A stretch of 15,447 nucleotides of DNA from an uncultured Rhodospirillaceae bacterium (GTDB taxonomy: Bacteria; Pseudomonadota; Alphaproteobacteria; RF32; CAG-239). The translations under genes were made by a program, and so were the position numbers. Shown in pieces: positions 779-15,121 of this stretch (its first letter is position 1; every line of letters begins with the position of its first letter). The notes under the pieces are model-generated. The model worked only from the letters and a program-made list of their open reading frames with translations, had not been told where the DNA came from and searched no databases. The stretch is from the NCBI GenBank assembly GCA_900313355.1, contig OMQZ01000027.1, positions 1-15,447 on the forward strand, in the 5' to 3' direction.

Positions 779-817
779 TTGAAAAGTTTAAAACCCGCTG
801 TTTTCAAGCGGGTTTTT
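779..817 (+). repeat. 39-bp direct repeat, copy 1 (contains the rpmJ terminator)
   Basis: This stretch is identical base for base to 2039-2077, exactly 1260 bases downstream. It covers a short AT-rich lead-in (TTGAAAAGTTTA), the terminator hairpin and the first T residues. The two copies bracket the SBP1 gene and its promoter. Confidence 0.9.
791..817 (+). terminator. Rho-independent terminator of rpmJ
   Basis: A nine-base-pair stem (AAACCCGCT 791-799 with AGCGGGTTT 807-815) closes a seven-base loop and runs into a T tract to 817. It lies 26 bases after the rpmJ stop codon. Confidence 0.92.
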
Positions 818-924: not shown

Positions 925-2031
925 ATGAAAAAAGTCATTTTAAGTTTATGTGTGCTTTTGGCACTAGGCGCTTGTAAAGAGCAAAAGAAAGCACAAATTA
1001 AGGAAAAACCCATTATCAAAATCGGTGCGGAGCTTCCTTTAAGCGGTGAATATGCACGTATCGGTCATGCTAACCAACAAGCGATCTTAATGGCTTTGGA
1101 AAAATGGCAAAACAAAAATACAAAATACAAATATGAGGTCATTTTTGAAGATGATCAAATGGCAACTTCGCGAGCGGCAATGGTAGCTAACAAGTTTATA
1201 AATGTTGACAAGGTGAAAGGTATTATATCTACCTGGGGAATTGTCGGACCTGTTGTCGCAGATGTTGCAGATAAAAATCAGGTAATCAGTATGGCTTGTG
1301 CCGGTATGAAAGAGATTGTTAAACCTTATTATTCTTTCAATCACTTCACACAAGACGATAAATTGGCCGAAAAGTTGGTGCCTTTGTTGAAAGAGAAAGG
1401 CGTTCGTAATGTTGTTTTTGCTTATACGGCAGCTGCAGCTTATGATGAAAAAGCCAAAGTTATGGAGGAAAAGCTTACGCAAAACGGCATTAATGTTTTA
1501 GCGGTGGAACGTTACAACATTTCGGAAACTGATTTTAGGGTATCGATTCGTAAGTTAGAACAATTAAATCCGGATGCATATATTGATTTTGTAATGATGC
1601 CCGGAACGGTTAATTTTATCAAACAATTTAATGAAATAACTCAAGGGAAACGATTGCTTATCGGATTGCATGTTTTCAACGAAATGCCCTCAAAATATTG
1701 GACGATGGTTGAAGGTTTGTATTCTGTCAGAGATACGAACGGAACAGCAGAGTTCAGCCGTGCATTCCAGGAAAGAACAGGGGAAGACAACCAGCCCTGC
1801 AACGGCAACCATTATGACAACTTGGATCTGTTGATTTGGGCTTTTGAAAACACACCGGTTAAAGAAGGAAAAACGGTGCCGGATACAAAAGATGTGGTTG
1901 AAAAACTCCATTCGATTAAGAATTGGAGCGGTGCTGTCGGAAAAATTTCTGTTGAAGACAGCGGACTTATCAACTCCGAAGCTATCCTTGAAATATATCA
2001 AGACGGAAAACCTGTTTCAATAGAAGAATAG
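925..2031 (+). CDS. SBP1: Liv-type (Peripla_BP_6) substrate-binding lipoprotein, stand-alone
   Basis: This 368-residue protein is a type I periplasmic binding protein of the branched-chain amino acid (LivJ/LivK) class. A lipoprotein signal peptide ends in lipobox LGAC with Cys17, followed by a charged linker to about residue 29. Family marks follow: IKIGAELPLSG (31-41), FEDD (74-77), NVDKVKG (93-99) and ETDFRVSIRKL (201-211). It has its own promoter and an AGGA ribosome site, and is separated from livH by a terminator, so its level can differ from the operon-encoded paralogs. Aligned by eye to E. coli LivJ, the contact positions Ser79/Thr102/Glu226 are Gly105/Gly127/His249, so it probably does not bind a plain aliphatic amino acid in the LivJ manner. 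Its C-terminal Glu-Glu is coded GAA GAA, with no Shine-Dalgarno, unlike the operon copies. It presumably delivers to the LivHMGF channel; the true ligand is unknown. Confidence 0.92.
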   Translation: MKKVILSLCVLLALGACKEQKKAQIKEKPIIKIGAELPLSGEYARIGHANQQAILMALEKWQNKNTKYKYEVIFEDDQMATSRAAMVANKFINVDKVKGIISTWGIVGPVVADVADKNQVISMACAGMKEIVKPYYSFNHFTQDDKLAEKLVPLLKEKGVRNVVFAYTAAAAYDEKAKVMEEKLTQNGINVLAVERYNISETDFRVSIRKLEQLNPDAYIDFVMMPGTVNFIKQFNEITQGKRLLIGLHVFNEMPSKYWTMVEGLYSVRDTNGTAEFSRAFQERTGEDNQPCNGNHYDNLDLLIWAFENTPVKEGKTVPDTKDVVEKLHSIKNWSGAVGKISVEDSGLINSEAILEIYQDGKPVSIEE

Positions 2032-2038
2032 TTTTCTT

Positions 2039-2077
2039 TTGAAAAGTTTAAAACCCGCTGTTTTCAAGCGGGTTTTT
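2039..2077 (+). repeat. 39-bp direct repeat, copy 2 (contains the SBP1 terminator)
   Basis: This is an exact copy of 779-817, beginning seven bases after the SBP1 stop codon. The exact copy over stem, loop and flanks shows that the terminator was duplicated, either together with or by the event that placed SBP1 between rpmJ and livH. Confidence 0.9.
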
Positions 2078-2080
2078 TTT
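2051..2080 (+). terminator. Rho-independent terminator of SBP1
   Basis: The stem AAACCCGCT (2051-2059) pairs with AGCGGGTTT (2067-2075) around a seven-base loop, followed by a run of eight T residues (2073-2080). The run is longer than in the rpmJ copy, so termination should be at least as efficient. Confidence 0.92.
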
Positions 2081-2102
2081 GTATATGAAAAACAAAAAAT
2101 GC

Positions 2103-2131
2103 TTTAAAAGACGTTTTAAAAACCGTATAAT
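2103..2131 (+). promoter_or_regulatory. Probable promoter of the livH-SBP2..10-livMGF operon
   Basis: TTTAAA (2103-2108), a 17-base spacer and a perfect TATAAT (2126-2131) lie between the SBP1 terminator and livH. The expected start is near 2138, giving a leader of only about 22 bases with AAAGGG (2143-2148) as the likely ribosome site. The short leader leaves no room for a riboswitch or attenuator. Confidence 0.6.
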
Positions 2132-2159
2132 CCGCATGTTTGAAAGGGTTTGAAAACGA

Positions 2160-3023
2160 ATGTTTCTTGTTTTGCTCATTAATGTTTTGATTGTCGGTGC
2201 GGGTTACGGCTTAATGGCGATGGGCTTTGCGCTGATGTGTTCGGTTTCGCCGTTTTTTAATTTAACGCTTGGCTCAATCATTGCTTTAGGTGCATATGGC
2301 ACATACGCCCTGACAAATTTGGCGGGGCTTCCTGCTGTTTTTGCGATTCCCGCAAGCATTGTCCTTTGCGCCGTTTTGTCGGCTTTGCTTGAACGATTTG
2401 TATATACACCGTTTCGCTTGAAAGGTGCATCGTCAATGGTTCTTTTGGTGGTATCATTGGGACTCTATACAATTTCGGAAGCATTTATTCACCTTGCTTT
2501 CGGTCCGCAATATCAAATTTTAGGCGGGGTGTCCGTACAAAACATTAATTTTGCTTCTTTTTCAATGCCGAAAGTTCAGTTTTTAACGATTGTCGCAGAT
2601 TTTGTGATTTTCGGAATATTGAACGGGCTTCTCTTTCACACGTTTTTCGGTAAAACAATACGTGCGGTTAATGACAATCCAAAGTTGGCCGATATAACGG
2701 GCTTGAACAACAACAAAATCATCTTAATCGTTTCTGCAATAGCAGGTATGATTTTAGGGCTTTCCGGTGTTTTAACAGGCTTTGATACGGGCCTTGAGCC
2801 GACAATGGGCTTTAATTTGCTTTTCAAAGGCATTATTGCGGCAATTATCGGCGGTATGAGCACAATGAAAGGTCCGTTTTTGGGTGCGTTTTTCTTGGCG
2901 GCTGCCGAAAATATCGGCGTTTTGGCTTTATCGTCCGAATGGCGTGATTTAGTCGCTTTCGTAATTTTTATCATCTTTTTAATGTTCCGTCCGAATGGTA
3001 TTTTTGAAAAAAAGGAGAAATAA
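2160..3023 (+). CDS. livH: LivH-type permease of a branched-chain-amino-acid-class ABC importer
   Basis: The 287-residue inner-membrane protein has about eight hydrophobic segments. It shows the LivH hallmarks: LGSIIALGAYGTYAL near 37-51, a cytoplasmic coupling loop GKTIRAVNDNPKLADITGLN (164-183) that docks on the ABC subunit, and GGMSTMKGPFLGA (231-243). It ends in FRPNGIFEKKEK. The length is close to the family norm of roughly 290-310. It pairs with LivM to form the channel. The start is the ATG at 2160, with AAAGGG eleven bases upstream. It is the first gene of the operon. Its last codons (AAG GAG AAA TAA) supply the ribosome site of SBP2, whose ATG directly abuts the stop. Unusually, livH is separated from livM by about 9.7 kb of binding-protein genes. 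UrtB, the urea-transporter homologue, is a less likely alternative. Confidence 0.95.
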   Translation: MFLVLLINVLIVGAGYGLMAMGFALMCSVSPFFNLTLGSIIALGAYGTYALTNLAGLPAVFAIPASIVLCAVLSALLERFVYTPFRLKGASSMVLLVVSLGLYTISEAFIHLAFGPQYQILGGVSVQNINFASFSMPKVQFLTIVADFVIFGILNGLLFHTFFGKTIRAVNDNPKLADITGLNNNKIILIVSAIAGMILGLSGVLTGFDTGLEPTMGFNLLFKGIIAAIIGGMSTMKGPFLGAFFLAAAENIGVLALSSEWRDLVAFVIFIIFLMFRPNGIFEKKEK

Positions 3024-4112
3024 ATGTTTAAAAAACTGATTTTAAGTTTGTGTCTTGTTTTGGCGCTTGGTGCGTGCAAAGAAGAAAAAGCGCCTGAAGC
3101 GCAGGTAAAGCCTGTTGTTAAAATCGGCGTTGTTGATGCGCTGAGCGGAAAATATGCGGAAAACGGGCAAAATGTGCGTCAGGCCATCGAATTTGCTAAA
3201 GAAAATTTTGCTTCATCGGGCATCGATTTTGAATTTGTTTTTGAAGATTACGGCTATGAATCAAAGCGCGCTGCGGTTGCTGCAAATAAATTAATTCACG
3301 TTGATAAGGTCGATGCGCTGATCAGTTGGAGCTCTATGTCCGGAAATGTGGTTTCTCCGATTGCCGATAAAATGAAAATGATCCACTTTGCTATCTGCAA
3401 TGATGATCGCGTTGCTGAAGGAAAGTATAATTTTACGCATTTTACCCCGTCGCAAAAGTTAGCGGAAAAGCTCGTTAAACAAATAGAAGATAAAGGTGCT
3501 CAAAAAGTTGCGCTGTTTGCAGTTTATCAACCGGCGTTGCAAAAGCACACCGACGAGGTTGAAAGAATGTTAAAAGAAAAGGGTCTTAAAACAGAACGTT
3601 TCAATTTTTCCATGGATAATTTGGATTTTGACTTAATGCTTGAAAAAGCTCGTCAAAACAATTTTGACGTGTGGTATATTGCGGCTTTGCCGCCAAGTTT
3701 GGATATTTTCTTAAAGACATTTTTCCAGAAAAATATTGAAGTTCCTTTGGTTGCGATCGATTCTTTGCTTTTTGCGCAAGACAAGGCGTCGGTTGAAGGA
3801 ATGAGCTTTGTAACAACGCCTGATGGGAACAAAGCACTATTGGAAAAATTGACGGCAACGAACGGTTCGAAAAATTATTTTTCGGTCGGATATGCCTATG
3901 ATGTGGCGAATCTTTTGATGAAGGCATATGCCGATTTGTATAAGCTTAACAAAAAAATTCCGAGCTCGGATGAAGTTGCCGATTATTTGCTCAATTTGAA
4001 GGGATATAAAGGGGCTGTCGGTGAATTGATAATGGATGAAAGAGGGATTGTAATATCGCCCGCTGTTGTCAAACAAATGAAAGATGGTGTTCCGGTCGTT
4101 ATTGAGGAGTAG
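3024..4112 (+). CDS. SBP2: Liv-type substrate-binding lipoprotein
   Basis: The 362-residue protein has lipobox LGAC with Cys18, one residue later than in its paralogs because of an extra Phe after Met1. A linker KEEKAPEAQVKP leads into the fold at VKIGVVDALSG (32-42). Other marks are FEDYGYESKRAA (74-85), HVDKVDALIS (92-101) and DFDLMLEKA (201-209), where the usual GERDF is degenerate. The positions aligned to LivJ Ser79/Thr102/Glu226 are Ser104/Asn126/Asp246, a mixed pattern suggesting a modified amino acid-like ligand. The segment after the pocket (AIDSLL...EG..FV..PDG) most resembles SBP7. The ATG abuts the livH stop and uses the strong AAGGAG inside the livH end. Its own end, GAG GAG TAG, provides the ribosome site of SBP3 three bases downstream. 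Confidence 0.93.
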   Translation: MFKKLILSLCLVLALGACKEEKAPEAQVKPVVKIGVVDALSGKYAENGQNVRQAIEFAKENFASSGIDFEFVFEDYGYESKRAAVAANKLIHVDKVDALISWSSMSGNVVSPIADKMKMIHFAICNDDRVAEGKYNFTHFTPSQKLAEKLVKQIEDKGAQKVALFAVYQPALQKHTDEVERMLKEKGLKTERFNFSMDNLDFDLMLEKARQNNFDVWYIAALPPSLDIFLKTFFQKNIEVPLVAIDSLLFAQDKASVEGMSFVTTPDGNKALLEKLTATNGSKNYFSVGYAYDVANLLMKAYADLYKLNKKIPSSDEVADYLLNLKGYKGAVGELIMDERGIVISPAVVKQMKDGVPVVIEE

Positions 4113-4115
4113 AAC

Positions 4116-5195
4116 ATGAAAAAACTGATTTTAAGTTTGTGTTTTATTTTGGCGCTTGGGGCATGCAAAGAAGAAAACAAAAAACCGCAAGAAAAGCCTG
4201 TCGTTAAAATAGGTGCTATCCTTCCTTTAAGCGGAGATTTAGCCGTTTGGGGCAATAGTGAAAAACAAGGTATTCTGTTAGCTCAAGAAAATTTATCGAA
4301 AGACTTAAAAAACAAATATGAGATTGTTTTTGAAGATTCCTTAAATGCTAATAAAAATATTCAACATATTGCACAAAAAATGATCAGTGTGGATAAGGTA
4401 GATGTTATCATAACAATGTTTGACCCCGCGGCCAATATTGTCGGTCCGATGGCTACGACAAACAAAATTATTCATTTCGGACAATCGTGGTTTCCGCAAT
4501 ATGTAACAGATAAATACAATTATAATGTTTATGCGGATATTAAACAAGAAGCTCAGCTTATCGCGGATTACCTTGCTAACAAAGGAATTAAGAAAGTTTA
4601 TTTGTTTACGGTTAATCAAACAGGTTTTATCGGTGGAACAGAGATTTTAAAGTCGCTGCTCAAAAAAAGAGATATTGAATATCAGGAAAGGAACTTCAAT
4701 TTCGGACAAACAGATTTCAGAACAGACATCATCAAAGCTAAATCTTTTGAAGCTCAAGCTTATATTATCGGGGCTTTTGCGCCGGAGGCAGATATTTTAA
4801 CCAAACAATTAAAGCAAATTATAGGACAAGATATCATTGTTACCGGATTGGATTTAGGGCTTAACGTTGCCAACAGAAGCATTTATGAAGGCAGTGTTTT
4901 CGGTTCTCCGGCTATACCGAATAAGTCTTTTTTGAATGCTTATCACGAAAAATATAAAGATGAGAATTACCTCTTTGGCGCAACAGTCGGTTATGTTTCG
5001 TTTAATGCGATTGTTTATGCCTTTGAAAATATTGAAACAACGGACAAACAGGTTGCCGCTGCTTTTTTAAGTTCTCAACACAGCGTTCCGACAATATATG
5101 ATGAAGAAATCGTGAAAGACAAGGGATTGATTTATATTCCGTCAAAATTGCTTACGATTGATCATAATGAGCTTATTGTCTTTGAGGAGAAATAA
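4116..5195 (+). CDS. SBP3: Liv-type substrate-binding lipoprotein, Asp/Trp/Asp pocket
   Basis: This 359-residue lipoprotein has Cys17 in LGAC and the linker KEENKKPQEKP. Fold marks are VKIGAILPLSG (30-40), FEDSLNANK (72-80), VDKVDVIIT (92-100) and GQTDFRTDIIKA (197-208). The LivJ contact positions align to Asp103, Trp125 and Asp246, a combination shared only with SBP7 and unlike an alpha-amino acid pocket. An acid facing the ligand carboxylate site would favour a cationic or amide/amine ligand; that is inference. FAPEADILTKQ (221-231) resembles SBP8. The 5' end shares long identical DNA with SBP2, and the linker with SBP4. The final codons GAG GAG AAA TAA hold the ribosome site of SBP4, and the ATG of SBP4 begins one base after the stop. 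Confidence 0.93.
   Translation: MKKLILSLCFILALGACKEENKKPQEKPVVKIGAILPLSGDLAVWGNSEKQGILLAQENLSKDLKNKYEIVFEDSLNANKNIQHIAQKMISVDKVDVIITMFDPAANIVGPMATTNKIIHFGQSWFPQYVTDKYNYNVYADIKQEAQLIADYLANKGIKKVYLFTVNQTGFIGGTEILKSLLKKRDIEYQERNFNFGQTDFRTDIIKAKSFEAQAYIIGAFAPEADILTKQLKQIIGQDIIVTGLDLGLNVANRSIYEGSVFGSPAIPNKSFLNAYHEKYKDENYLFGATVGYVSFNAIVYAFENIETTDKQVAAAFLSSQHSVPTIYDEEIVKDKGLIYIPSKLLTIDHNELIVFEEK
5184..5189 (+). promoter_or_regulatory. Shine-Dalgarno that fixes the SBP4 start, inside the end of SBP3
   Basis: GAGGAG lies seven bases before the ATG at 5197. It codes the last Glu-Glu of SBP3. It supports 5197 rather than the in-frame ATG at 5158, which would add 13 residues in front of the signal peptide. 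Confidence 0.8.
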
Positions 5196-5196
5196 T

Positions 5197-6264
5197 ATGA
5201 ACAAAATCGTTTTATCTTTATTTATGGCTCTTTCTCTTATAGCTTGTAAAGAAGAAACCCATAAGCCTCAAGAAAAGCCTGTCGTTAAAATAGGTATCAT
5301 TGCGCCGATGAGCGGCGAATATGCGCATTTTGGTGAGTCGATGAAAGTCGCCGTTAAAATGTTTGAAGAAGACGATGAAACAAAAAATTCAGCCCGTCGC
5401 TATCGGTTTTTTATTGAAGACAATGCTTTTAATCCGGCAAGAAGCGCCATCGTTGCAAAAAAGCTGATAGATGTTGATAAAGTTGATGTGATTGTAACAT
5501 TGAGCTCTGATATAGGCTCTGTCGTTTCTCCGATTACGCAAGATGCGCGCGTTATTCACATGTCAATGGCAACTGAGCCGAATGTTGCTAAAGGCGAATA
5601 TAACTTTACGGCCAGCACGCCGCCGAACAAAAATACGGGAAGAATGATTGAAGAATTGGAAAAATTAAATCTTAATCGGGTGGCTTTTGTGATACAAAAC
5701 ACGGCTATGATGCAATCTGTTGCGGAACAGGTTCGTAAGGCCGGAAAAAACGGCAGAATCACCATCGTATCAGACAATGCCATCAACAGCGGTGAAAGAG
5801 ATTTCAGAATATTGATTCATAAAATCCTGGAAGATAAACCTGATGCCATGATTGTTCAGCTACAGCCTCCGGAGTTGCAAATTTTTGTAAAACAGTTACG
5901 TGAAATCAATAAAGATATTTTAATTACATCCGTTGAATCTTTCGGCTATCCTGAGGATAAAACGCTCTTTGAAGGGACGTGGTTTTCGGGCGCCGTTGTG
6001 CCAACAAAGGCTTATGTCGCAAAATATAAAGAAATGACAGGCTCTGATGCGACAAATTATTCCGAGTTGTTTTATTCTTGTTTTGAGGTTGTAAGACATG
6101 CTTACACTTCAGAAGACAAAGCAAAAGTGATAAACAATATTTTAGATCTTAAAATGAAGAGTTTTTCAATCGGTGATATTTCTTTTGATGAAGATGGTAT
6201 GATGCAAACAAATGCCTACCTGTACACAATCAAAAACGGTCAAATGGAAGTTATGGAGGAATAA
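5197..6264 (+). CDS. SBP4: Liv-type substrate-binding lipoprotein with amino acid-type pocket
   Basis: Starting at 5197 the protein has 355 residues. The signal peptide MNKIVLSLFMALSLIAC ends at Cys17; it is the most diverged signal of the array and lacks the usual Cys9. A more upstream in-frame ATG (5158) would place charged residues before the signal and overlaps SBP3, so it is rejected. Fold marks are VKIGIIAPMSG (30-40), IEDNAFNPARSAIVAKKL (73-90), VDKVDVIVT (93-101) and SGERDFRILIHKI (198-210). Ser104, Thr126 and Glu247 match LivJ Ser79, Thr102 and Glu226, so it is a good candidate for a true alpha-amino acid binder. It is closest to SBP9 and SBP6 (MATEPNVAKGEYN against TATDPNVAKGKYN). 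The end GAG GAA TAA forms the ribosome site of SBP5. Confidence 0.92.
   Translation: MNKIVLSLFMALSLIACKEETHKPQEKPVVKIGIIAPMSGEYAHFGESMKVAVKMFEEDDETKNSARRYRFFIEDNAFNPARSAIVAKKLIDVDKVDVIVTLSSDIGSVVSPITQDARVIHMSMATEPNVAKGEYNFTASTPPNKNTGRMIEELEKLNLNRVAFVIQNTAMMQSVAEQVRKAGKNGRITIVSDNAINSGERDFRILIHKILEDKPDAMIVQLQPPELQIFVKQLREINKDILITSVESFGYPEDKTLFEGTWFSGAVVPTKAYVAKYKEMTGSDATNYSELFYSCFEVVRHAYTSEDKAKVINNILDLKMKSFSIGDISFDEDGMMQTNAYLYTIKNGQMEVMEE
6255..6260 (+). promoter_or_regulatory. Shine-Dalgarno that fixes the SBP5 start, inside the end of SBP4
   Basis: GGAGGA lies eight bases before the ATG at 6269 and overlaps the last codons of SBP4. The in-frame ATG at 6212 would add 19 non-signal residues inside SBP4 and has no comparable site. 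Confidence 0.8.
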
Positions 6265-6268
6265 AAAT

Positions 6269-7288
6269 ATGAAAAAGTTTGCTTTAGTTTTATGTATGTT
6301 TTTAGCCCTTGTTGCCTGCAAAGATCAAAAGGAAACAGCGACAAAAGAAAAACCCGTTGTTAAAATCGGTGTGATTTTGCCTTTAACGGGTGCAAATACA
6401 TATATGGGATCGCAAATGCGTGAAGGGTATGAGTTTGTAAAAGAATATGAAAAACCTGATATCAATTATGAACTGATTTATTTTGATGATCAACAACAGC
6501 CGGCAAAAGCAGCGATAGGCGCAAAAAAATTGATCGAGGTCGATAAAGTTGATGCCTTACTGACGGGAACATCACAAACGGCCGCCGTTGTGGCTGATAT
6601 GGCCGAAAGTGCTAAAATAATTCATTTAGGCATTTCAAGCGATACGCGTTTTGCCCAAAAAAATTATAACTATACCATGGCTCCCGATGTGGCAGATGAG
6701 GCTGCAGTAATTTTGAAATATATGCAAGAACAAGGATATCGCAACCTCGCATTGATTTCGTCTAATGAAATGTATGCCAATCTGGTTCAAGAAAATGTAA
6801 GCAAATATGCACCCGAATATGATATAGCATTAACTTTTAATGAAAAGTTTACACCCGGCTCAACGGATTATCGCATATTATTGCACAAAGCGGCTCAAAC
6901 AAATCCGGATATTTTTCTTCTTCAAGCGTGGATGCCTGAAATTGATATTTTAACAAGACAGTTGTTGGAAATAGCCCCTGATGCGAAAATAACATCTTTA
7001 TATGCATTTTTCATATCTCCTACTCCGGAACTTTATAAAGGACGCTTTTGTTTAAACGTCGGAAGTGAAAATGAAACGTTTAAAAAAGCATTTTATGAAA
7101 AGTATGGCAAGCATATAGAGCAAATGTCGTCAACAACTTATGCACAGTTATCACTGATGTTGGATATATTAAAAAATAAAAATACGGATTTAAGTCAAAT
7201 AATCAAACAACATGACAGCATATTCGGAAAGCTGACTTTAGACGGTCACGCAATCAGGTACTTGCCGATTGTGGAAACACTTGAATAA
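6269..7288 (+). CDS. SBP5: Liv-type substrate-binding lipoprotein, shortest and atypical C-terminus
   Basis: The 339-residue protein starting at 6269 has signal peptide MKKFALVLCMFLALVAC with Cys17. Fold marks are VKIGVILPLTG (31-41), FDDQQQPAKAAIGAKKL (72-88), VDKVDALLT (91-99) and GSTDYRILLHKA (197-208), where Tyr replaces the usual Phe. The pocket positions align to Ser102, Ser124 and Tyr245, so the amine-binding Glu is missing. It is about 16-26 residues shorter than its neighbours. It ends IVETLE instead of the usual ...IEE, losing the final strand residues and the built-in Shine-Dalgarno. The gap to SBP6 is the largest in the array (11 bases). The 5' end (first 30 bases) is identical to SBP7 and SBP9. 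It appears intact: no frameshift or internal stop. Confidence 0.92.
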   Translation: MKKFALVLCMFLALVACKDQKETATKEKPVVKIGVILPLTGANTYMGSQMREGYEFVKEYEKPDINYELIYFDDQQQPAKAAIGAKKLIEVDKVDALLTGTSQTAAVVADMAESAKIIHLGISSDTRFAQKNYNYTMAPDVADEAAVILKYMQEQGYRNLALISSNEMYANLVQENVSKYAPEYDIALTFNEKFTPGSTDYRILLHKAAQTNPDIFLLQAWMPEIDILTRQLLEIAPDAKITSLYAFFISPTPELYKGRFCLNVGSENETFKKAFYEKYGKHIEQMSSTTYAQLSLMLDILKNKNTDLSQIIKQHDSIFGKLTLDGHAIRYLPIVETLE

Positions 7289-7299
7289 GAGAATAAAAC

Positions 7300-8373
7300 A
7301 TGAAAAAAATAGCCTTAGTTTTATGTATGGTTTTAGCCCTTGGTGCTTGTAAGGAAGAAAAAAAAGTTGCGCAAAACAATAAGCCGACGATAAAGATTGG
7401 TATTGTCGCACCGTTGACCGGTAATTTGGCAATGGTGGGTGAGGGAATAAAAAGTGCCGTTATTATGGCAGAGGAAGATCTGAAAACACGTAACCTTAAA
7501 AATCAGTATGAATTCGTTGTTGAAGACGATGGCTATGAAGCCGGTAAAACAGCATTGATTTATCCGAAATTAAAATCGGTTGATAAAGTTGATGCAATTT
7601 TAAGCACGTTTTCTCAAACGGGAAAAATTATCTCTCCTCGTGCCGATGCTGATAAAATACTTCATATAAGTCTTTCTTCGGATGCTGAAATTGCAAAGGG
7701 AGAATATAATTTTCTCGACTGGACAACACCTAAATACACGGCAAAACGCATGTTGGAATTTTACAAAGAACGTAACATCAAAAAAATTGTCAGCTTTGTT
7801 CCCAATAATGCAGGGACATTACCTCAAGAAAATGCTTTCATGGATCTTGTAAAAGAAGACGGAGAAATTGAGGTTTCGCGCTATCTTATTGCGCCGGAAG
7901 AAACAGATTTCAGAATACTGTTTGCAAAAGCAAAAGAAGAAAAACCCGATGCTTATCTGGCATTGATTTACGGTGCCAGTTTTGTTCCTTTTTTCAAGCA
8001 GTACCAAGAGACAGGCCAAACCGCGCTGGTTACAAGTATAGAAACTTTTGCCACCTTGTCCGACACATCAATTGCTCAAGGGGCTTACTATACAGATGCG
8101 GCTGTTGCCAATGATACATTTTTGAAAAGACACCAACAACGATTCGGTGAGATATCTAATTATGGTGTCGGAACAATGTATGATATGGTGATGCTTGCCG
8201 TAGAGGCTTTTGAAAAAACAGACAATAAAAATTTGGCTGCTGATGAGTTAGCAAAGATAAAACATTATAACGGTGTTGTCGGAGAGTTAGAACAAGATGA
8301 TGAGGGAATTTTCAATTCTCAGGCCGTTTTGATGGAAATAAAAGACGGAAAAAGAATAAGAGTAGAGGAATAA
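7300..8373 (+). CDS. SBP6: Liv-type substrate-binding lipoprotein with amino acid-type pocket
   Basis: This 357-residue lipoprotein has Cys17 in LGAC and linker KEEKKVAQNNKP. Fold marks are IKIGIVAPLTG (31-41), VEDDGYEAGKTA (74-85), SVDKVDAIL (93-101) and ETDFRILFAKA (201-211). Ser105, Ser127 and Glu248 match the LivJ contact pattern, and the surroundings (SDAEIAKGEYNF, TSIETF) place it with SBP4 and SBP9 as a likely amino acid binder. The ribosome site is weak (AGAGAA, 7288-7293) compared with the rest of the operon, because SBP5 does not end in GAG GAA. Reinitiation may be less efficient here. Its own end, GTA GAG GAA TAA, starts the long repeat shared with the SBP7/SBP8 junction. Confidence 0.93.
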   Translation: MKKIALVLCMVLALGACKEEKKVAQNNKPTIKIGIVAPLTGNLAMVGEGIKSAVIMAEEDLKTRNLKNQYEFVVEDDGYEAGKTALIYPKLKSVDKVDAILSTFSQTGKIISPRADADKILHISLSSDAEIAKGEYNFLDWTTPKYTAKRMLEFYKERNIKKIVSFVPNNAGTLPQENAFMDLVKEDGEIEVSRYLIAPEETDFRILFAKAKEEKPDAYLALIYGASFVPFFKQYQETGQTALVTSIETFATLSDTSIAQGAYYTDAAVANDTFLKRHQQRFGEISNYGVGTMYDMVMLAVEAFEKTDNKNLAADELAKIKHYNGVVGELEQDDEGIFNSQAVLMEIKDGKRIRVEE

Positions 8374-8415
8374 AACAATGAAAAAGTTTGCTTTAGTTTT
8401 ATGTATGATTTTAGC
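8363..8415 (+). repeat. Junction repeat A, copy 1 (end of SBP6 / signal peptide of SBP7)
   Basis: These 53 bases match 9453-9505 with one mismatch (codon 3 AAG against AAA). The unit spans the GAG GAA TAA end of one gene, the four-base gap and the first 38 bases of the next. It is a natural site for homologous exchange between array members. Confidence 0.85.
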
Positions 8416-9463
8416 GCTTGGTGCGTGCAAAGACCAAAAAGCAAAACAGCCTCAATTAAAGCCAATTGTGAAAATCGGAGCTACATTACCGCTGACAGGA
8501 AACATGGCAAATATCGGCAATGCTATTAAAGAGGCGTTGTTGATGGCTAAAGAAGAAATCCCCTCAGACAGCAAATATAATTACGAATTAATTATTGAAG
8601 ATGACAGCTACGATTATAAAAGGACGGCTTTGAACATAAATAATTTTGCCGACATAAAAAAAGCAGATGTCGTTTTGTCGTTGTTTGACGGCGCGGCCGG
8701 AATAATTGCACCCGTTGCGGAAAGAAACAAAATAAATCATATCGGGTGTGCATGGGGCGAAAAATTTTTTGAAGAATACAAATACTCCTTTAACCATTTC
8801 TCAAAGCCTGAAACACAAGCGAAAGCTTTTGTAGAACTTTTACAGGAAAAAGACATTAAAAAATTTGCGATTGTAGCGATTAACTATGCGTCGATGACGG
8901 AAATGCTTGAATACATTGAAAAAGACACAAAAGAAAAAAACATAGGAATAACGTCTGTTAATTTGGTTAATTTCGGTGAAAGAGATTTTCGTATTATTAT
9001 CGAAAAAATAAAATCACAAAATCCTGATATCGTTATGTTGGTTATGCTCAATCCCGAACTTGACATATTTATTAAACAAGCGATGGAAGCAAATTTAAAT
9101 AAACCTTATACGGCCATAGATTTGTTGCCGGCAACCAACTATAAAAAGCTTCTTGAGGGGACAGAATTTGTGATGTCACCGGATGGTTCCGCTGATTTCA
9201 AAAATAAATTTGCGCAGAAAACGGATTTACCTCTGACATCATGTGTGGCAAATTTATATGATGCGGTAAGAATAACCGTCGATTTATACGAAAAATATAA
9301 TGCCAAACCGAGTTCCGAACAAATTAACAATGATTTGTACCATTTAAGAAATTTTGATTCGGCAATCGGAGGTCAGGTGAATGTCGATGAAAACGGAATC
9401 ATTGATGCTGACTTAATTAAGGTAAAGTTTGAAGGCGGTAAATTAAAAACGATAGAGGAATAA
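8378..9463 (+). CDS. SBP7: Liv-type substrate-binding lipoprotein, Asp/Trp/Asp pocket
   Basis: The 361-residue protein has signal peptide MKKFALVLCMILALGAC (Cys17) and linker KDQKAKQPQLKP, nearly the same as that of SBP9. Fold marks are VKIGATLPLTG (31-41), IEDDSYDYKRTA (73-84), KKADVVLS (94-101) and GERDFRIIIEKI (200-211). The contact positions align to Asp104, Trp126 and Asp248, the same trio as in SBP3, though the rest of the protein is closer to SBP2 (AIDLLP, EGTEFVMSPDG). The strand before the pocket reads NNFADIKKADVV in place of the common NKxIxxDKVD. The start has the strong GAGGAA site in the end of SBP6; its own end GAG GAA TAA serves SBP8. Confidence 0.93.
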   Translation: MKKFALVLCMILALGACKDQKAKQPQLKPIVKIGATLPLTGNMANIGNAIKEALLMAKEEIPSDSKYNYELIIEDDSYDYKRTALNINNFADIKKADVVLSLFDGAAGIIAPVAERNKINHIGCAWGEKFFEEYKYSFNHFSKPETQAKAFVELLQEKDIKKFAIVAINYASMTEMLEYIEKDTKEKNIGITSVNLVNFGERDFRIIIEKIKSQNPDIVMLVMLNPELDIFIKQAMEANLNKPYTAIDLLPATNYKKLLEGTEFVMSPDGSADFKNKFAQKTDLPLTSCVANLYDAVRITVDLYEKYNAKPSSEQINNDLYHLRNFDSAIGGQVNVDENGIIDADLIKVKFEGGKLKTIEE

Positions 9464-9505
9464 AACAATGAAAAAATTTGCTTTAGTTTTATGTATGATT
9501 TTAGC
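9453..9505 (+). repeat. Junction repeat A, copy 2 (end of SBP7 / signal peptide of SBP8)
   Basis: This copy matches 8363-8415 over 53 bases with one mismatch. Further on, the first 62 bases of SBP8 (9468-9529) match the first 62 of SBP9 with only two mismatches. Confidence 0.85.
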
Positions 9506-10550
9506 ACTCAGTGCTTGTAAAGAAGAAAAAGCGCCTGAAACGCTGGCAAAGCCTGTTGTTAAAATAGGTGCATCTTTTCCTCTGTCAGGCAACATGGCTG
9601 CAATCGGTAACGCCGCACACAAGGCCTTGGTTGCCTCAATCAACGATGTAAACAAAAATAAAAATAACAAGTATCACTATGTGCTCATCACAGACAACGA
9701 TCAAATGGATGCAAAATACATTTTAAACATCGCAAACAAGTTTATTTTTCAAGACAAAGTTGATGTTTTAATTTCATATTTTTCGGTTGCAGGGCGGATT
9801 GTTGCGCCACTTGCCGCTGAGCATAAAATTATCAACTTTAATTTTGGTTTTGGTGATGAAGTTTTACAAAGCAAATATAATTTTCAAAACTTTTTAACAG
9901 TTGAAGCCGAAAACGAAGCGGTAATAAGCTTCTTAAAGAAAAATGAGATTCAAAATGTTGATTTGGTTTATCAAAATATTGGGGCGGCCGATCAATTTTT
10001 AGCCCATTTGGAAAAACTTTTAGAAAAAAATAAGATTGCATATACCATTTATCGTTTTAACAAAGGCGAGAGGGATTTTAAAATTTTGACTTCAAAAATC
10101 AAAGAATCACTGAGTGAAGCTGTTTTTATTTATGCATTTGAGCCGGAAGCCGATATCTTAACGCAAGAATTTCGCGTACAAAATGTTCAAAAATTGGTGG
10201 CCTATAATGATGGTTTGCCGATGACAAACAATTATGAAATCTATGAGGGATATTACAACATCGGTTCAATCATGACCCCTGAAAAATACCAAAAAGAGTG
10301 GGGGCTTGAAGGGGAAAATGCCGCTTATGCCGTTTATTTGTATGATACCGGACAAATTATTGCAGAAGCTTATGAAAATGCACCGACACACAATAGAATT
10401 CCGAGTTCGGACGAAATATCGGCATATTTGCTTTCAAAGCAAAATTATTTTGGTTTAGCAGGGAATTTGAAGCTTGATCAAAAAGGTCAGTTCCATTCAA
10501 AAGGTCAGACAACAATCGTTAAAAACAATTATTTAACAATAGCGGATTAA
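9468..10550 (+). CDS. SBP8: Liv-type substrate-binding lipoprotein
   Basis: This 360-residue lipoprotein has Cys17 in LSAC. The linker KEEKAPETLAKP resembles those of SBP2 and SBP10, while the signal peptide belongs to the SBP7/SBP9 type, so the gene looks mosaic at its 5' end. Fold marks are VKIGASFPLSG (31-41), ITDNDQMDAKYI (74-85, with a Thr-Asp instead of Glu-Asp), FQDKVDVLIS (94-103) and GERDFKILTSKI (200-211). The contact positions align to Ser106, Phe128 and Asn247, a pocket that should not hold an amino group in the LivJ way. FEPEADILTQE (224-234) resembles SBP3; IPSSDE near the C-terminus resembles SBP2. It ends IAD, so the ribosome site offered to SBP9 is only a weak GCGGAT. Confidence 0.93.
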   Translation: MKKFALVLCMILALSACKEEKAPETLAKPVVKIGASFPLSGNMAAIGNAAHKALVASINDVNKNKNNKYHYVLITDNDQMDAKYILNIANKFIFQDKVDVLISYFSVAGRIVAPLAAEHKIINFNFGFGDEVLQSKYNFQNFLTVEAENEAVISFLKKNEIQNVDLVYQNIGAADQFLAHLEKLLEKNKIAYTIYRFNKGERDFKILTSKIKESLSEAVFIYAFEPEADILTQEFRVQNVQKLVAYNDGLPMTNNYEIYEGYYNIGSIMTPEKYQKEWGLEGENAAYAVYLYDTGQIIAEAYENAPTHNRIPSSDEISAYLLSKQNYFGLAGNLKLDQKGQFHSKGQTTIVKNNYLTIAD

Positions 10551-10555
10551 AAACA

Positions 10556-10593
10556 ATGAAAAAGTTTGCTTTAGTTTTATGTATGATTTTAGC
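10556..10593 (+). repeat. Signal-peptide repeat in SBP9
   Basis: The first 38 bases of SBP9 are identical to the first 38 of SBP7 (8378-8415) and differ by one base from SBP8. SBP5 is identical for its first 30 bases. Synonymous positions are conserved as well, which argues for recent conversion or duplication rather than protein-level selection alone. Confidence 0.85.
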
Positions 10594-11629
10594 ACTCGGT
10601 GCTTGTAAAGAAGAAAAGGCAAAACAGCCTCAATCAAAACCTGTTATTAAAATCGGAGCCCTGTATCCGATGTCGGGTGATGGAGCCGTTTTCGGTGAGG
10701 CAGCAAAAAATGCTGTCAGCATATTTTTTGAAGAGTTTAACAGCAAACCTCATAAATTTGATTATCAGGTCGTTTTTGAAGACAATCAAAACGTGCTTTC
10801 AAAACAAGCGGTTTTAGCTCAAAAAATCATAAATATAGATAAAGCGGATGTGTTGATTACTGTTCTGTCAAATTTTGGGGCAGTTGTTTCTCCGCTTGCA
10901 CAACAAAGTAAAACACTGCATATTTCGACAGCCACGGATCCGAACGTTGCAAAAGGAAAATATAATATCATAGCTTCTTCTAATCCTCAAGGTGAAATAG
11001 ATTTGCTTTACACGACACTCCTTAAAAACAAGGTCCAAAAAGTTGATGTGGTGATTGCTCAGGCAACCGGACCGGAAGTTATGCTTGATGAATTAAAGCA
11101 AAAGGAAGGCTTAAATATCGACCAAGTATATTCCGTTAATATCAATGAAAAAGATTTTCGATTAATGCTTCATAAGATCAAAGAGAATAAACCGGATTAT
11201 ATTATCGCGCTTTTAGCGATGCCGACGATTGATGTTTTTATGCGGCAATATCACGAAAACGAAATAAATATTCCCGTAACAGGCATAGAAACTTTCAGCT
11301 ATTTGCAAAACAAGGAACTTGCTGAAGGAATGTGGTATGTTGATGCGGCGCCTGCGACAGATGAATATGTTAAAAAATATCAGGAAAAAACAGGCTCTAA
11401 CACGACAAATTATGCCGAATATATGGATTTTATGCTTCAAATGGTAACATTCGGATATGAAAAATCAGGATCAACAAATGCTGAAGATGTTGCAAACTAT
11501 CTTGAAAATAACGCGTCAGGCCAAAAAACCGCGGTTGGCGTTGTTTCAGTTGAACCGGATGGCGTTTTAATTGCTCAACCGGTTGTTAAAAAAGTAATTA
11601 ACGGTGAACCGGTTATTATAAAGGAATAA
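10556..11629 (+). CDS. SBP9: Liv-type substrate-binding lipoprotein with amino acid-type pocket
   Basis: The 357-residue protein has signal peptide MKKFALVLCMILALGAC with Cys17, then KEEKAKQPQSKP. Fold marks are IKIGALYPMSG (31-41), FEDNQNVLSKQAVLAQKI (74-91), NIDKADVLIT (93-102) and EKDFRLMLHKI (198-208). Ser105, Thr127 and Glu245 reproduce the LivJ Ser79/Thr102/Glu226 trio, the most LivJ-like pocket of the set with SBP4. The two also share TGS-x-x-TNY near residue 285. The gap to SBP8 is five bases with a weak ribosome site. It ends AAG GAA TAA, giving an AAGGAA site for SBP10. Small plus-strand frames inside it are shadows. Confidence 0.93.
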   Translation: MKKFALVLCMILALGACKEEKAKQPQSKPVIKIGALYPMSGDGAVFGEAAKNAVSIFFEEFNSKPHKFDYQVVFEDNQNVLSKQAVLAQKIINIDKADVLITVLSNFGAVVSPLAQQSKTLHISTATDPNVAKGKYNIIASSNPQGEIDLLYTTLLKNKVQKVDVVIAQATGPEVMLDELKQKEGLNIDQVYSVNINEKDFRLMLHKIKENKPDYIIALLAMPTIDVFMRQYHENEINIPVTGIETFSYLQNKELAEGMWYVDAAPATDEYVKKYQEKTGSNTTNYAEYMDFMLQMVTFGYEKSGSTNAEDVANYLENNASGQKTAVGVVSVEPDGVLIAQPVVKKVINGEPVIIKE

Positions 11630-11632
11630 AAC

Positions 11633-12730
11633 ATGAAAAAACTTATACTTATTTTATGTTTTGCTCTAGCACTCACAGCTTGCAAAGATGAAAAAAAAGC
11701 CCCTGAAACGCAGGTAAAGCCTGTCATTAAAATCGGGGCAATTATACCGCTTTCAGGTCCGCAGGCGGCTATGGGAGAAGCGGCGAAAGCGGGTATGCAA
11801 AAAGCCTTAAAAGAAAAAACAAATTCAAATCAGCATTATAATTACGAACTTGTTTTTGAAGATAATCAGGCAAAGTTACAGGTTATGCCAACTCTCGCCA
11901 ACAAGATTATTTTACAAGACAATGTTGATGCGCTTGCGACGATCACATCAGCTATGGCAAGAGTTATTGCACCGATTACCGACGAAAAAGAAAAAGTGTT
12001 ATACAATTTTTCTATTGAACAGGGCGATTATGAGCGCTTTGGTAAATATACTTTTACACAAGGCATGCCCATAGATGCCATTGCAGATAAAGCAGAAGAA
12101 TTTTTGACGCAAAAAGGCATGAATGATATTTTGATTTTTGCTGAAAATATAGGTATTATCGGGTCCTTAACCACATATTTATCAAAAAACTTATCCGAAA
12201 AAAATATACGCCACAATGTTAACACGTTTAACCCCGGCGAAAGAGATTTTCGCGTTGCTATTGAAAAAGCGAAAGCAGAGGGGTACAAATACTTTTTTAC
12301 TTTTGGTTTTCCGCCTGAGAGGACGATTATTCGCAAACAACTGGTTGAAAGCTCTGTTACAAATGATTATATATATTCATTTTGTATGGATTTAGAAAAA
12401 GCTTCAGATGATAATAACAACATAACAACCGTGACCTATAATCCCGGACCGAGTGAATTTGTTGAAAGTGTACAACAGGAATATAATATTGACAGCACAT
12501 TCGGTTCCGCGGTATTTTATGATTTTGTAAGTTTGATGATTGAGGCTTATGAAGCTCTTTACAAAAACGGAGAAAAACCGACGGCAGAAGAAATTACAAC
12601 CTACATTCACGGCAAAAAGAAATATCCGTGTATGAGCGGAATCTGTATTGTTAATGAGAATGGTTTTATAACAAACGATCCTGTTTTTAGAACCTTTCAA
12701 AACGGTAAATGGCAAACAATTGGGGAATAA
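11633..12730 (+). CDS. SBP10: Liv-type substrate-binding lipoprotein, most divergent array member
   Basis: This 365-residue lipoprotein is the longest of the array. The signal peptide MKKLILILCFALALTAC (Cys17) is of its own type, with linker KDEKKAPETQVKP like SBP2. Fold marks are IKIGAIIPLSG (32-42), FEDNQAKLQ (75-83), LQDNVDALAT (94-103) and GERDFRVAIEKA (202-213). The contact positions align to Ser106 and Ile128; the third cannot be placed with confidence (IYSFCMD, 247-253). The second pocket loop reads LYNFSIEQGDYERFGKY, unlike any paralog. It has an acidic/Asn-rich stretch DDNNNITT (259-266) and two nearby cysteines, Cys333 and Cys338 (YPCMSGICIV), that may form a disulfide. It ends GGG GAA TAA, which serves the GTG start of livM. 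Confidence 0.92.
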   Translation: MKKLILILCFALALTACKDEKKAPETQVKPVIKIGAIIPLSGPQAAMGEAAKAGMQKALKEKTNSNQHYNYELVFEDNQAKLQVMPTLANKIILQDNVDALATITSAMARVIAPITDEKEKVLYNFSIEQGDYERFGKYTFTQGMPIDAIADKAEEFLTQKGMNDILIFAENIGIIGSLTTYLSKNLSEKNIRHNVNTFNPGERDFRVAIEKAKAEGYKYFFTFGFPPERTIIRKQLVESSVTNDYIYSFCMDLEKASDDNNNITTVTYNPGPSEFVESVQQEYNIDSTFGSAVFYDFVSLMIEAYEALYKNGEKPTAEEITTYIHGKKKYPCMSGICIVNENGFITNDPVFRTFQNGKWQTIGE

Positions 12731-12733
12731 AAA

Positions 12734-13600: not shown

Positions 13601-13603
13601 AAT

Positions 13604-14419
13604 ATGGCGCTGAAAGATTATTTAAAAAAATATCGGTCAATAGATAAAGGTCTCGCAAAAGAGCGGATGGACGTTTATCAGGAAGGTTTGGATGCCATTT
13701 CAACCTTGCATTTGAGCAAATCGTTTATGGGCATTAAAGCGGTTAACGATTTGAGCATTTCTTTTCCGAAAGGGCTTGTAACGGGGCTCATCGGTCCGAA
13801 CGGCTCAGGAAAATCAACGCTGATTAATGTGCTTACGGGGTTGCTTACCCCTGATGCCGGTTCTGTTGTTATTTCAGGGCGTGCTTTTCCTTACATCAAA
13901 CCATATAAGCTCCGCAAATTCAAAATAGCGCGCACATTCCAAGATGCAAGGCTTATTGAGCAATTAAGTGTTGAAGATAATCTGCTTTTGAGCGTGGCTC
14001 AAAATAAAATTGAAAAAAGCCTGTTTGAATTAAACGCAAAAGCATATCGCAAAAAACTTGAAGGGATATTGGTCAAAACGGGCTTAAAAGACCATCGCTT
14101 CAAAAAAGCGGAAGAACTCTCTTATGGGCAAAGAAAGCTCTTGGAAATCGGCAGAGCTTTGATGCAAGAAGCAGATATTTATATTTTTGATGAGCCGTTC
14201 ACGGGGCTTTCGCCGCAGATGGTTGAAGAGGTTTTATCCATCATCGAAATTTTGCGTGTTGAAGCAAAAACGGTAATTTTGATTGAACATAATATGGGGC
14301 TCATTGAAAAGCTTTCGGACTATGTGATTGTCTTAGACCATGGCACGCTTCTTGCCTCAGGCGCCCCGAAAGACGTTTTGAAAAATAAACTTGTCCAAGA
14401 AGCATATTTAGGAGTGTAA
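13604..14419 (+). CDS. livG: LivG-type ATP-binding subunit
   Basis: The 271-residue cytoplasmic ATPase has all motifs intact: Walker A GPNGSGKST (64-72), Q-loop Gln113 in TFQD, ABC signature LSYGQ (172-176), Walker B IYIFDEP (192-198) and H-loop His229 in IEHN. The C-terminal region (ASGAPKDVLKNKLVQEAYLGV) is the usual LivG tail. It powers the LivHM channel as a heterodimer with LivF. An unusual point is an N-terminal extension of about 32 charged residues (MALKDYLKKYRSIDKGLAKE onward) before the first ABC strand, which LivG proteins normally lack. The ATG has AGGGTG just upstream and no better internal start, though a start within the extension cannot be fully excluded. The end of the gene (GGA GTG TAA) serves livF. 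Confidence 0.95.
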   Translation: MALKDYLKKYRSIDKGLAKERMDVYQEGLDAISTLHLSKSFMGIKAVNDLSISFPKGLVTGLIGPNGSGKSTLINVLTGLLTPDAGSVVISGRAFPYIKPYKLRKFKIARTFQDARLIEQLSVEDNLLLSVAQNKIEKSLFELNAKAYRKKLEGILVKTGLKDHRFKKAEELSYGQRKLLEIGRALMQEADIYIFDEPFTGLSPQMVEEVLSIIEILRVEAKTVILIEHNMGLIEKLSDYVIVLDHGTLLASGAPKDVLKNKLVQEAYLGV

Positions 14420-14422
14420 GTC

Positions 14423-15121
14423 ATGCTCACCTTAAAAAACATAGATGCCGGCTATGGAAAAAAGAAAGTTTTAAATGATGTGTCAGCTTTATTTAAAGCT
14501 GATTCTATCACGGTTGTGATGGGGCCGAACGGCGCCGGAAAATCAACGCTCTTAAAGGTGGCATTCGGACTTTTGAAACCTTACAAGGGAGAAGTTTTGT
14601 TTGAAGACAAAACAGTGAAAGCCTCTCCTCAGATGTTTGTGAAAAACGGCATTTTTATGGTTCCTCAGGGGCGCCGCGTTTTCAAAGATATGACGGTTAG
14701 GGAAAACATCGAACTTGCTACCGGTTTTTGGAAATCTCGCCGGAATTTTGAGGAAGAGTTTGAGCGTGTTTTAAGCTATTTTGAAGAATTAAAGCCATTC
14801 TTAAAACTACCTGCGGGCAATCTATCGGGCGGACAGCAACAAATGGTGGCGTTGGCGCGTGCTTTCATCAACAAGCCGAAAATGGTGCTTATGGATGAAC
14901 CCTCAATCGGGTTGTCTCCAAAGCTGATCAATGACACGTTTTCCAAAATTAAAGAAATAAAGGATAAAACAGGAGCGGGCTTTGTGATTGTGGAACACAA
15001 TTTAAAAACGCTTTTGCCTTTAACGGATTTTGCCTATATTCTAAAAGATGGAGCCGTCGTATATAATGGAAAATCGGAAGGCAGTGTTTTAGAAAAAATG
15101 ATGAATACCGTTTTTGAATAA
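14423..15121 (+). CDS. livF: LivF-type ATP-binding subunit
   Basis: The 232-residue ATPase has Walker A GPNGAGKST (34-42), Q-loop Gln82 in VPQGR, signature LSGGQ (134-138), Walker B MVLMDEP (154-160) and H-loop His192 in VEHN. The PQGRRVFKDMTVRENIELA stretch is typical of LivF. The length is the normal 230-240. It is the last gene of the operon, three bases after livG, using GGAG in the end of livG as ribosome site. With LivG it hydrolyses ATP to drive import. A terminator follows 41 bases after the stop. Confidence 0.96.
   Translation: MLTLKNIDAGYGKKKVLNDVSALFKADSITVVMGPNGAGKSTLLKVAFGLLKPYKGEVLFEDKTVKASPQMFVKNGIFMVPQGRRVFKDMTVRENIELATGFWKSRRNFEEEFERVLSYFEELKPFLKLPAGNLSGGQQQMVALARAFINKPKMVLMDEPSIGLSPKLINDTFSKIKEIKDKTGAGFVIVEHNLKTLLPLTDFAYILKDGAVVYNGKSEGSVLEKMMNTVFE

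What the first reader, a model, noticed from the sequence alone, without database searches (positions are those of the whole stretch)
925..15121. Ten paralogous binding lipoproteins serving one Liv-type ABC importer
The sequence shows ten intact genes of one binding-protein family around a single livH-livM-livG-livF set. HAAT importers usually have one or two binding proteins (for example LivJ and LivK sharing LivHMGF in E. coli). Ten for one channel suggests a modular capture system in which many ligands, or one ligand class over many concentrations or variants, feed one permease. Sharing of the permease is inferred from linkage, and no other permease is in view.
Basis: partly seen in the sequence, partly recalled or inferred. 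Interest (0 to 1): 0.85.

Follow-up and report, generated by a model that had tools for sequence, protein, structure and literature searches.

The report
Shuffled binding-protein cassettes, one importer
A small-genome bacterium related to rumen Alphaproteobacteria carries ten different nutrient-catching proteins around one import channel, and comparison with relatives suggests these catchers behave like swappable cassettes with a shared, recombining front end, which may let a reduced genome change its diet without adding transporters.

Summary
In detail: ten intact LivJ/LivK-type lipoprotein genes (PF13458) surround one livH-livM-livG-livF set, and no other such permease was found in the 78%-complete genome. 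Of 58 liv loci from other bacteria, 55 have one such gene nearby. Relatives hold 1 to about 14 at the locus, in an order no more conserved than chance. Ligand-pocket columns are more conserved between orthologues, and more divergent between paralogues, than other columns, so different ligands are likely. Unexpectedly, paralogues of one genome share their first ~34 codons (up to 96% of bases) while the rest is unrelated in DNA (about 45%); the excess stops at codon 35. Window leaders are mosaics. In one relative a ~164-base spacer is repeated at 5 of 5 close SBP junctions. Best reading: tandem binding-protein cassettes feeding one importer, reshuffled by recombination at shared junction-leader blocks. 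The mechanism class is known (esaG/tipC arrays); I found no report of it for importers in the papers searched. Ligands and docking are untested.

The parts
925..2031 (+). S1, binding lipoprotein; probably a separate transcription unit
   Evidence: PF13458 130.5 bits; identical terminator hairpins on both sides; cysteines at LivJ positions 100 and 276
790..816 (+). intrinsic-terminator-like hairpin upstream of S1
   Evidence: identical stem-loop to 2050-2076
2050..2076 (+). intrinsic-terminator-like hairpin between S1 and livH
   Evidence: repeat family D10
2160..3023 (+). livH, permease subunit
   Evidence: PF02653 106 bits
3024..4112 (+). S2, binding lipoprotein
   Evidence: PF13458 105.7 bits
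4116..5195 (+). S3, binding lipoprotein
   Evidence: PF13458 96.7 bits
5197..6264 (+). S4, binding lipoprotein; keeps the LivJ amino-acid trio Ser-Thr-Glu
   Evidence: PF13458 117.7 bits; pocket columns
6269..7288 (+). S5, binding lipoprotein (339 aa); AlphaFold model
7300..8373 (+). S6, binding lipoprotein
   Evidence: PF13458 117.1 bits
8378..9463 (+). S7, binding lipoprotein; cysteines at LivJ positions 100 and 276
   Evidence: PF13458 104.8 bits
9468..10550 (+). S8, binding lipoprotein; mosaic leader
   Evidence: PF13458 63.6 bits; signal half nearest S9, linker half nearest S2
10556..11629 (+). S9, binding lipoprotein; keeps Ser-Thr-Glu trio; AlphaFold model
11633..12730 (+). S10, binding lipoprotein
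   Evidence: PF13458 72.3 bits
12734..13600 (+). livM, permease subunit (GTG start)
   Evidence: PF02653 145.9 bits
13604..14419 (+). livG, ATPase
   Evidence: PF00005 106 bits; BCA_ABC_TP_C 25.0 bits, just under its cut-off 25.5
14423..15121 (+). livF, ATPase
   Evidence: PF00005 110 bits
925..1025 (+). leader block of S1 (signal peptide, linker, KPIIKIG)
3024..3127 (+). leader block of S2
4116..4213 (+). leader block of S3
5197..5294 (+). leader block of S4
6269..6369 (+). leader block of S5
7300..7400 (+). leader block of S6
8378..8478 (+). leader block of S7
9468..9568 (+). leader block of S8
10556..10656 (+). leader block of S9
11633..11736 (+). leader block of S10

Best explanation
This is an importer of the branched-chain amino acid (HAAT) class in which one LivHMGF permease is served by a tandem set of binding-protein cassettes with different ligands. 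The cassettes share a front end: a short junction in which the last codons of one gene (often GAG GAG stop) can double as the ribosome-binding site of the next, a lipoprotein signal peptide, a linker and the KPVVKIG motif. These ~100-base blocks exchange sequence between paralogues by homologous recombination (gene conversion or unequal crossover), and they let whole cassettes be gained, lost and reordered without disturbing translation, export or anchoring. SHOWN by sequence: ten intact genes, one permease set, sharp end of the shared block at codon 34, mosaic leaders, shuffled order, pocket divergence. INFERRED: recombination as the cause of these patterns and of gain and loss, docking of all ten on LivHM, and ten distinct ligands.
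For: Anatomy and single permease; baseline of one SBP per liv locus in 55 of 58; SBP sets and livM occur together in 14 of 152 genomes, with one exception each way. Same-genome paralogues: mature 25.8% but leader 64.3% identical over 704 pairs; orthologues between genomes: mature 71.4%, leader 58.3% over 250 pairs; codon identity at identical residues in paralogue leaders 0.579, against 0.494 in their mature parts and 0.449 in leaders of unrelated pairs from different genomes. Nearest neighbour lies in the same genome for 4 of 136 mature parts but about 65 of 136 leaders; genome labels cluster leaders (0.122, largest of 300 permutations 0.024) and not mature parts (-0.009). The excess is +0.02 to +0.22 in residues 1-34 and within 0.016 of zero after that. 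Leader base identity of 0.90 or more in 11 of 698 paralogue pairs, 0 of 8157 unrelated and 0 of 250 orthologous pairs between genomes; of 0.80 or more in 85, 27 and 5. Genes with another SBP gene within 400 bases match the set's leaders better (0.691, n=100) than those without (0.585, n=17; Mann-Whitney p 7e-5). Mosaic leaders in S2, S3, S8, S10. G044: a hairpin-rich spacer, 98-100% identical, at 5 of 5 close SBP junctions; one more copy, 84% identical, precedes a lone SBP; no other full-length match in that genome. Order: 6 shared adjacencies of 55; shuffles mean 3.9, maximum 10 of 1000. Pocket: 18 of 19 groups more conserved there than overall; 0 of 5000 random column sets reach the observed contrast.
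Against: Most leader pairs are old: the silent-site excess is modest overall and absent in G102 (leader 0.379, mature 0.431; leader residues only 36% identical). The 20 bases upstream are little more alike within genomes (0.436) than between unrelated (0.394) or orthologous (0.431) pairs of different genomes. The nearest orthologue lies in the own genus for 35 of 66 SBPs, but livM (6 of 12) and livG (3 of 9) do no better, so transfer of cassettes between genera is not shown. Some SBPs lie on other contigs away from the permease (for example in G100, G093 and whole blocks in G045). None of the four liv genes reaches the NCBIfam cut-off of its E. coli Liv equivalog. No within-species variation, expression or binding data. 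G044's repeats could have misled assembly.
Confidence: 0.66

Rival explanations
1. Ordinary lineage-specific duplication: one ancestral SBP was duplicated many times long ago, the copies diverged, and leaders look alike because each genome's export machinery selects one style of signal peptide.
For: Silent-site excess is modest when all pairs are pooled; leaders are under functional constraint; SBPs of G102 (9 of 10) and G065 (1 of 1) lack a lipobox by a loose pattern and look membrane-anchored, a style change that selection could explain.
Against: Leader DNA up to 96% identical beside mature DNA at about 45%; mosaic leaders within the window; near-identical noncoding spacers at G044 junctions; genes outside the arrays of the same genomes share the leader less well.
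Confidence: 0.2
2. Most of the SBPs do not serve the permease but act as sensors, periplasmic buffers or decoys; only one or two (for example S9, S4 or the gene next to livM) feed LivHM.
For: SBPs exist on contigs away from any found permease; for the TTT family, roles in sensing have been proposed for orphan SBPs (PMC5994714, passages read).
Against: Nine of ten genes are packed inside the permease operon with gaps of 0-11 bases, and all 15 genomes with two or more profile matches, out of 152, have livM or livH.
Confidence: 0.14

Closest known systems
E. coli LivJ/LivK with LivHMGF (HAAT importer; TC 3.A.1.4 recalled)
   Same: Same five component families; two SBPs beside one permease set (annotated locus; sharing recalled)
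   Different: Two SBPs there, differing at 3 of the 11 pocket positions compared; ten lipoproteins with divergent pockets here, nine of them inside the permease operon, with shared leaders
Borrelia burgdorferi OppA1-5 with OppBCDF
   Same: Five lipoprotein SBPs dock on one permease (PMC12830385, passages read)
   Different: Peptide SBPs of another family; five, not ten or more; shared mosaic leaders were not mentioned in the passages read
TTT/Bug SBP expansions in Bordetella and Rhodoplanes (PMC5994714, passages read)
   Same: Far more SBPs than permease components in Proteobacteria; shared use of one membrane component proposed
   Different: Another transporter family; majority orphans in Bordetella; the term 'gene conversion' does not occur in the main text
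esaG and tipC immunity-gene arrays (PMC9484751, abstract and section list read)
   Same: Tandem non-identical paralogues recombine through shared homology blocks (for tipC at the 5' and 3' ends); for esaG this explains loss and expansion of copies
   Different: Immunity proteins of Firmicutes, not substrate-binding proteins of an importer

Membership tests
HAAT (Liv-type) ABC importer | SBP of the PF13458 type | tested here: met
HAAT (Liv-type) ABC importer | two PF02653 permease subunits | tested here: met
HAAT (Liv-type) ABC importer | two ABC ATPases | tested here: met
HAAT (Liv-type) ABC importer | amino-acid pocket (LivJ Ser79, Thr102, Glu226; residue list recalled) | tested here: inconclusive
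   trio intact in 20 of 136 SBPs; in the window in S4 and S9 only
HAAT (Liv-type) ABC importer | uptake of amino acids or amides | not testable with these tools
   no transport assay
E. coli-type LivHMGF equivalogs (NCBIfam) | scores over the NCBIfam cut-offs | tested here: not met
   LivM 171.6 of 366, LivG 163.6 of 362, LivF 157.4 of 441, LivH 70.6 of 379; so the gene names mean the class, not these equivalogs
Urea importer UrtABCDE (NCBIfam) | scores over the NCBIfam cut-offs | tested here: not met
   UrtD 185.4 of 304.1, UrtE 187 of 285.8, UrtC 114.2 of 296.2, UrtB 83.2 of 250.3; the ATPases and livH score higher here than with the Liv models, livM lower
Recombining tandem paralogue array (esaG/tipC kind) | blocks of high similarity shared by otherwise divergent tandem paralogues | tested here: met
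Recombining tandem paralogue array (esaG/tipC kind) | gain and loss of copies between close strains | not testable with these tools
   one genome per species is held; between species copy number and order vary
Antigenic-variation cassette family (one expression site, silent copies) | silent, promoterless or truncated donor copies | tested here: not met
   all ten window genes are intact, with start codon and purine-rich upstream sequence; expression itself not tested

The most novel reading that the evidence does not exclude
A lineage of small-genome gut Alphaproteobacteria runs a recombinational plug-in system for nutrient uptake: one permease plus an open-ended pool of binding-protein cassettes (27 groups and 17 singletons among 136 SBPs of the 17 genomes sampled), whose junction-leader blocks serve as exchange handles so that repertoire and order are reshuffled while any newly arrived domain is given the resident signal peptide.
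Probability: 0.4. Interest if true: 0.8.

Novelty: new variant of a known kind. Interest (0 to 1): 0.63.

Why it matters
It would show how a reduced genome can widen its diet without adding transporters, give a natural set of SBPs that presumably dock on one permease but differ in pocket (useful for learning the docking code), and extend array recombination known from immunity genes to nutrient receptors.

Tried and rejected
Urea importer: equivalog cut-offs not met, though nor are those of the E. coli Liv proteins. Many permeases elsewhere: only the window's livH and livM in the own, 78%-complete genome. RNA element in the junctions: only two tRNAs at Rfam's gathering scores in the window, L135 and L137. 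Conserved gene order: not above chance. Cassette transfer between genera judged by the nearest orthologue: inconclusive, because livM and livG show the same pattern. Promoter scan: 50 found, 43.3 expected, so not used; terminator scan: 30 found, 15.1 expected, of which only the two identical hairpins are used. Literature; among the papers listed (one search listed 20 of 145, 15 of 80, the others all) I saw no title or opening of an abstract that describes shared recombining leaders in substrate-binding protein arrays; most subscription papers are not held.

Dropped rows: of 151 SBPs found, 15 were left out of the statistics (cut by contig ends, incomplete by profile, or the SBP of G045's second system); 136 were used, among them three with atypical leaders (G065 and two of G102). 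G152 (found later) is not in the statistics. At most 13 first-look candidates per genome were scored, so counts for G045, G088, G102 and others are lower bounds. 'Solitary' means no other SBP gene within 400 bases on the same strand; some of the 17 lie at the liv locus, S1 of the window among them; G102 was left out there. The 11 pocket columns rest on LivJ contacts recalled from memory and on a MAFFT alignment. Lipobox presence is a loose pattern check.
Full report

HOW UNUSUAL. Of 58 liv loci of other bacteria fetched with livM, 55 hold one gene of this type, 2 none and 1 two. In the family, 15 of 152 genomes encode livM and 15 of 152 have two or more matches to the ten-paralogue profile; 14 have both. 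G044 has the SBPs, livH and livF but no livM or livG at the locus, and only one PF02653 match in all. G065 has livM and one SBP. Thirteen further genomes have a single profile match and no livM. A genome of another family of the order, G152, has livM 57% identical and ten full-size SBP frames plus two pieces around it, with leaders that look like membrane anchors without a lipobox.

A POOL OF CASSETTES. From 17 genomes I collected 151 SBPs and used 136. Average-linkage clustering of the mature parts gives 27 groups with two or more members and 17 singletons (S7 is a singleton). They sit between livH and livM, between livM and livG, between livG and livF, and after livF. Ordered adjacencies are shared by two or more genomes in 6 of 55 cases; shuffling members within genomes gives a mean of 3.9 and a maximum of 10 in 1000 trials. 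So order is not conserved beyond chance.

SHARED LEADERS. Over 704 same-genome pairs (mature identity under 50%) the leader is 64.3% identical and the mature part 25.8%; over 250 orthologous pairs between genomes the leader is 58.3% and the mature part 71.4%. The nearest neighbour is in the same genome for 4 of 136 mature parts and about 65 of 136 leaders (ties shared), and 84 of 108 SBPs with both kinds of relatives have leaders closer on average to their paralogues. Along the protein the excess identity of same-genome paralogues over unrelated pairs of different genomes is +0.07, +0.12, +0.15, +0.22, +0.13 and +0.02 in bins to residue 34, and within 0.016 of zero after that. At DNA level 11 of 698 paralogue pairs reach 0.90 in the leader while their mature DNA is 0.42-0.46; no pair between genomes does, unrelated (0 of 8157) or orthologous (0 of 250). 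In the window S9-S7 leaders are 0.87 and S9-S8 0.83 identical, with mature DNA at 0.45 and 0.44.

MOSAICS AND SPACERS. Split in two, the leader of S8 is nearest S9 in its signal half (0.96) and nearest S2 in its linker half (0.91); S3 is nearest S2 (0.92) and then S4 (0.89); S10 reaches only 0.69 in the signal half but 0.89 with S2 in the linker half. This is what exchange in short tracts would leave. In G044 a hairpin-rich spacer of about 164 bases (z -8.8) lies at 5 of 5 close SBP junctions, 98-100% identical, at matching distances from stop and start codons; a sixth copy, 84% identical, precedes a lone SBP; no further full-length match was found in that genome, while G045 has six partial copies of 78-80 bases, one of them 224 bases before an SBP gene and the others elsewhere. 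One insertion followed by spread with the junction is the simplest account. Genes with no other SBP gene within 400 bases share the set's leader less well (0.585, n=17) than the others (0.691, n=100; p 7e-5; G102 left out). Junctions are compact, often 3-5 bases between genes, and in many the final GAG GAG stop of one gene looks like the ribosome-binding site of the next (by eye, sequences; not counted).

LIGANDS. Using LivJ contact positions (recalled), identity at 11 pocket columns is 0.819 between orthologues and 0.148 between paralogues of one genome, against 0.694 and 0.264 for random columns; none of 5000 random sets reached the contrast. 18 of 19 groups with three or more members are more conserved in the pocket than overall; g5 is the exception. 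The Ser-Thr-Glu trio is intact in 20 of 136, in the window in S4 and S9. So S4 and S9 probably bind amino acids and others something else; which ligands cannot be said.

RESULTS AGAINST. Pooled silent-site excess in leaders is modest (0.579 against 0.494) and reversed in G102 (0.379 against 0.431), whose leaders are only 36% identical. Upstream 20-base identity differs little (0.436 within genomes, 0.394 between unrelated and 0.431 between orthologous genes of different genomes). The nearest orthologue lies in the own genus for 35 of 66 SBPs, but livM (6 of 12) and livG (3 of 9) behave alike, so exchange between genera is not shown. A lead left open: in the window's genus the four SBP orthologue pairs are 0.66-0.78 identical while livM and livG are 0.88-0.93; exchange, hidden paralogy or faster evolution would all fit. 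The loss of livM and livG in G044 fits a crossover between SBP junctions, but repeats of this length could equally have misled the assembler. The liv genes do not reach the NCBIfam cut-offs of the E. coli Liv or of the urea importer equivalogs.

VERDICT. By its parts it belongs to the HAAT importer class. The novelty is in the arrangement and its evolution: a shuffled tandem set of SBP cassettes with mosaic leader blocks around one permease. The closest mechanism known to me is array recombination in esaG and tipC (PMC9484751, abstract and section list read); the closest functional cases are Borrelia OppA1-5 (PMC12830385, passages) and the TTT SBP expansions (PMC5994714, passages).

Noticed in passing
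LivJ positions 100 and 276 in the SBP alignment; window S1 and S7: Two cysteines at pocket positions tend to occur together: both in 36 of 136 SBPs, one alone in 8, none in 92. A disulfide or a thiol or metal site in the pocket of one subset is possible.
   Followed up: partly
G102, G065 and G152 loci (L126, L122, L170): SBP leaders there look like N-terminal membrane anchors without a lipobox: 9 of 10 in G102 and 1 of 1 in G065 by a loose pattern, and the SBP frames of G152 by eye: a change of anchoring type across a whole set.
   Followed up: partly
G044:C11:192938-197311 (L137): livM and livG are missing between livH and livF although SBP genes remain; deletion by recombination or assembly collapse at the repeated junctions.
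   Followed up: partly
L114:9890-10906 (G004): A YhcG-type PDDEXK nuclease gene (PF06250, PF17761) sits inside the liv operon between livG and an SBP gene.
   Followed up: no
G000:C218:1477-2457 (L002): An SBP with an N-terminal anchor and no other SBP gene in the fetched 4 kb of the own genome; G001 has one with the same first 30 residues. Neighbouring frames look like ribosomal proteins and a translational GTPase (recognised from memory).
   Followed up: partly
window:12734-13600: Beyond the two same-genus records, the closest livM relatives in one pattern-based scan of genome contigs were Nitrospirae and Deltaproteobacteria groundwater MAGs (42-44%), not other Alphaproteobacteria. The scan reaches close relatives only, so this is a hint of old horizontal transfer, no more.
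   Followed up: no
window S5 and S9: Proteins 96% and 88% identical to S5 and S9 (P0064, P0002) lie on public contigs whose longest is 15,372 bases in both cases, perhaps one sister locus of the window.
   Followed up: no
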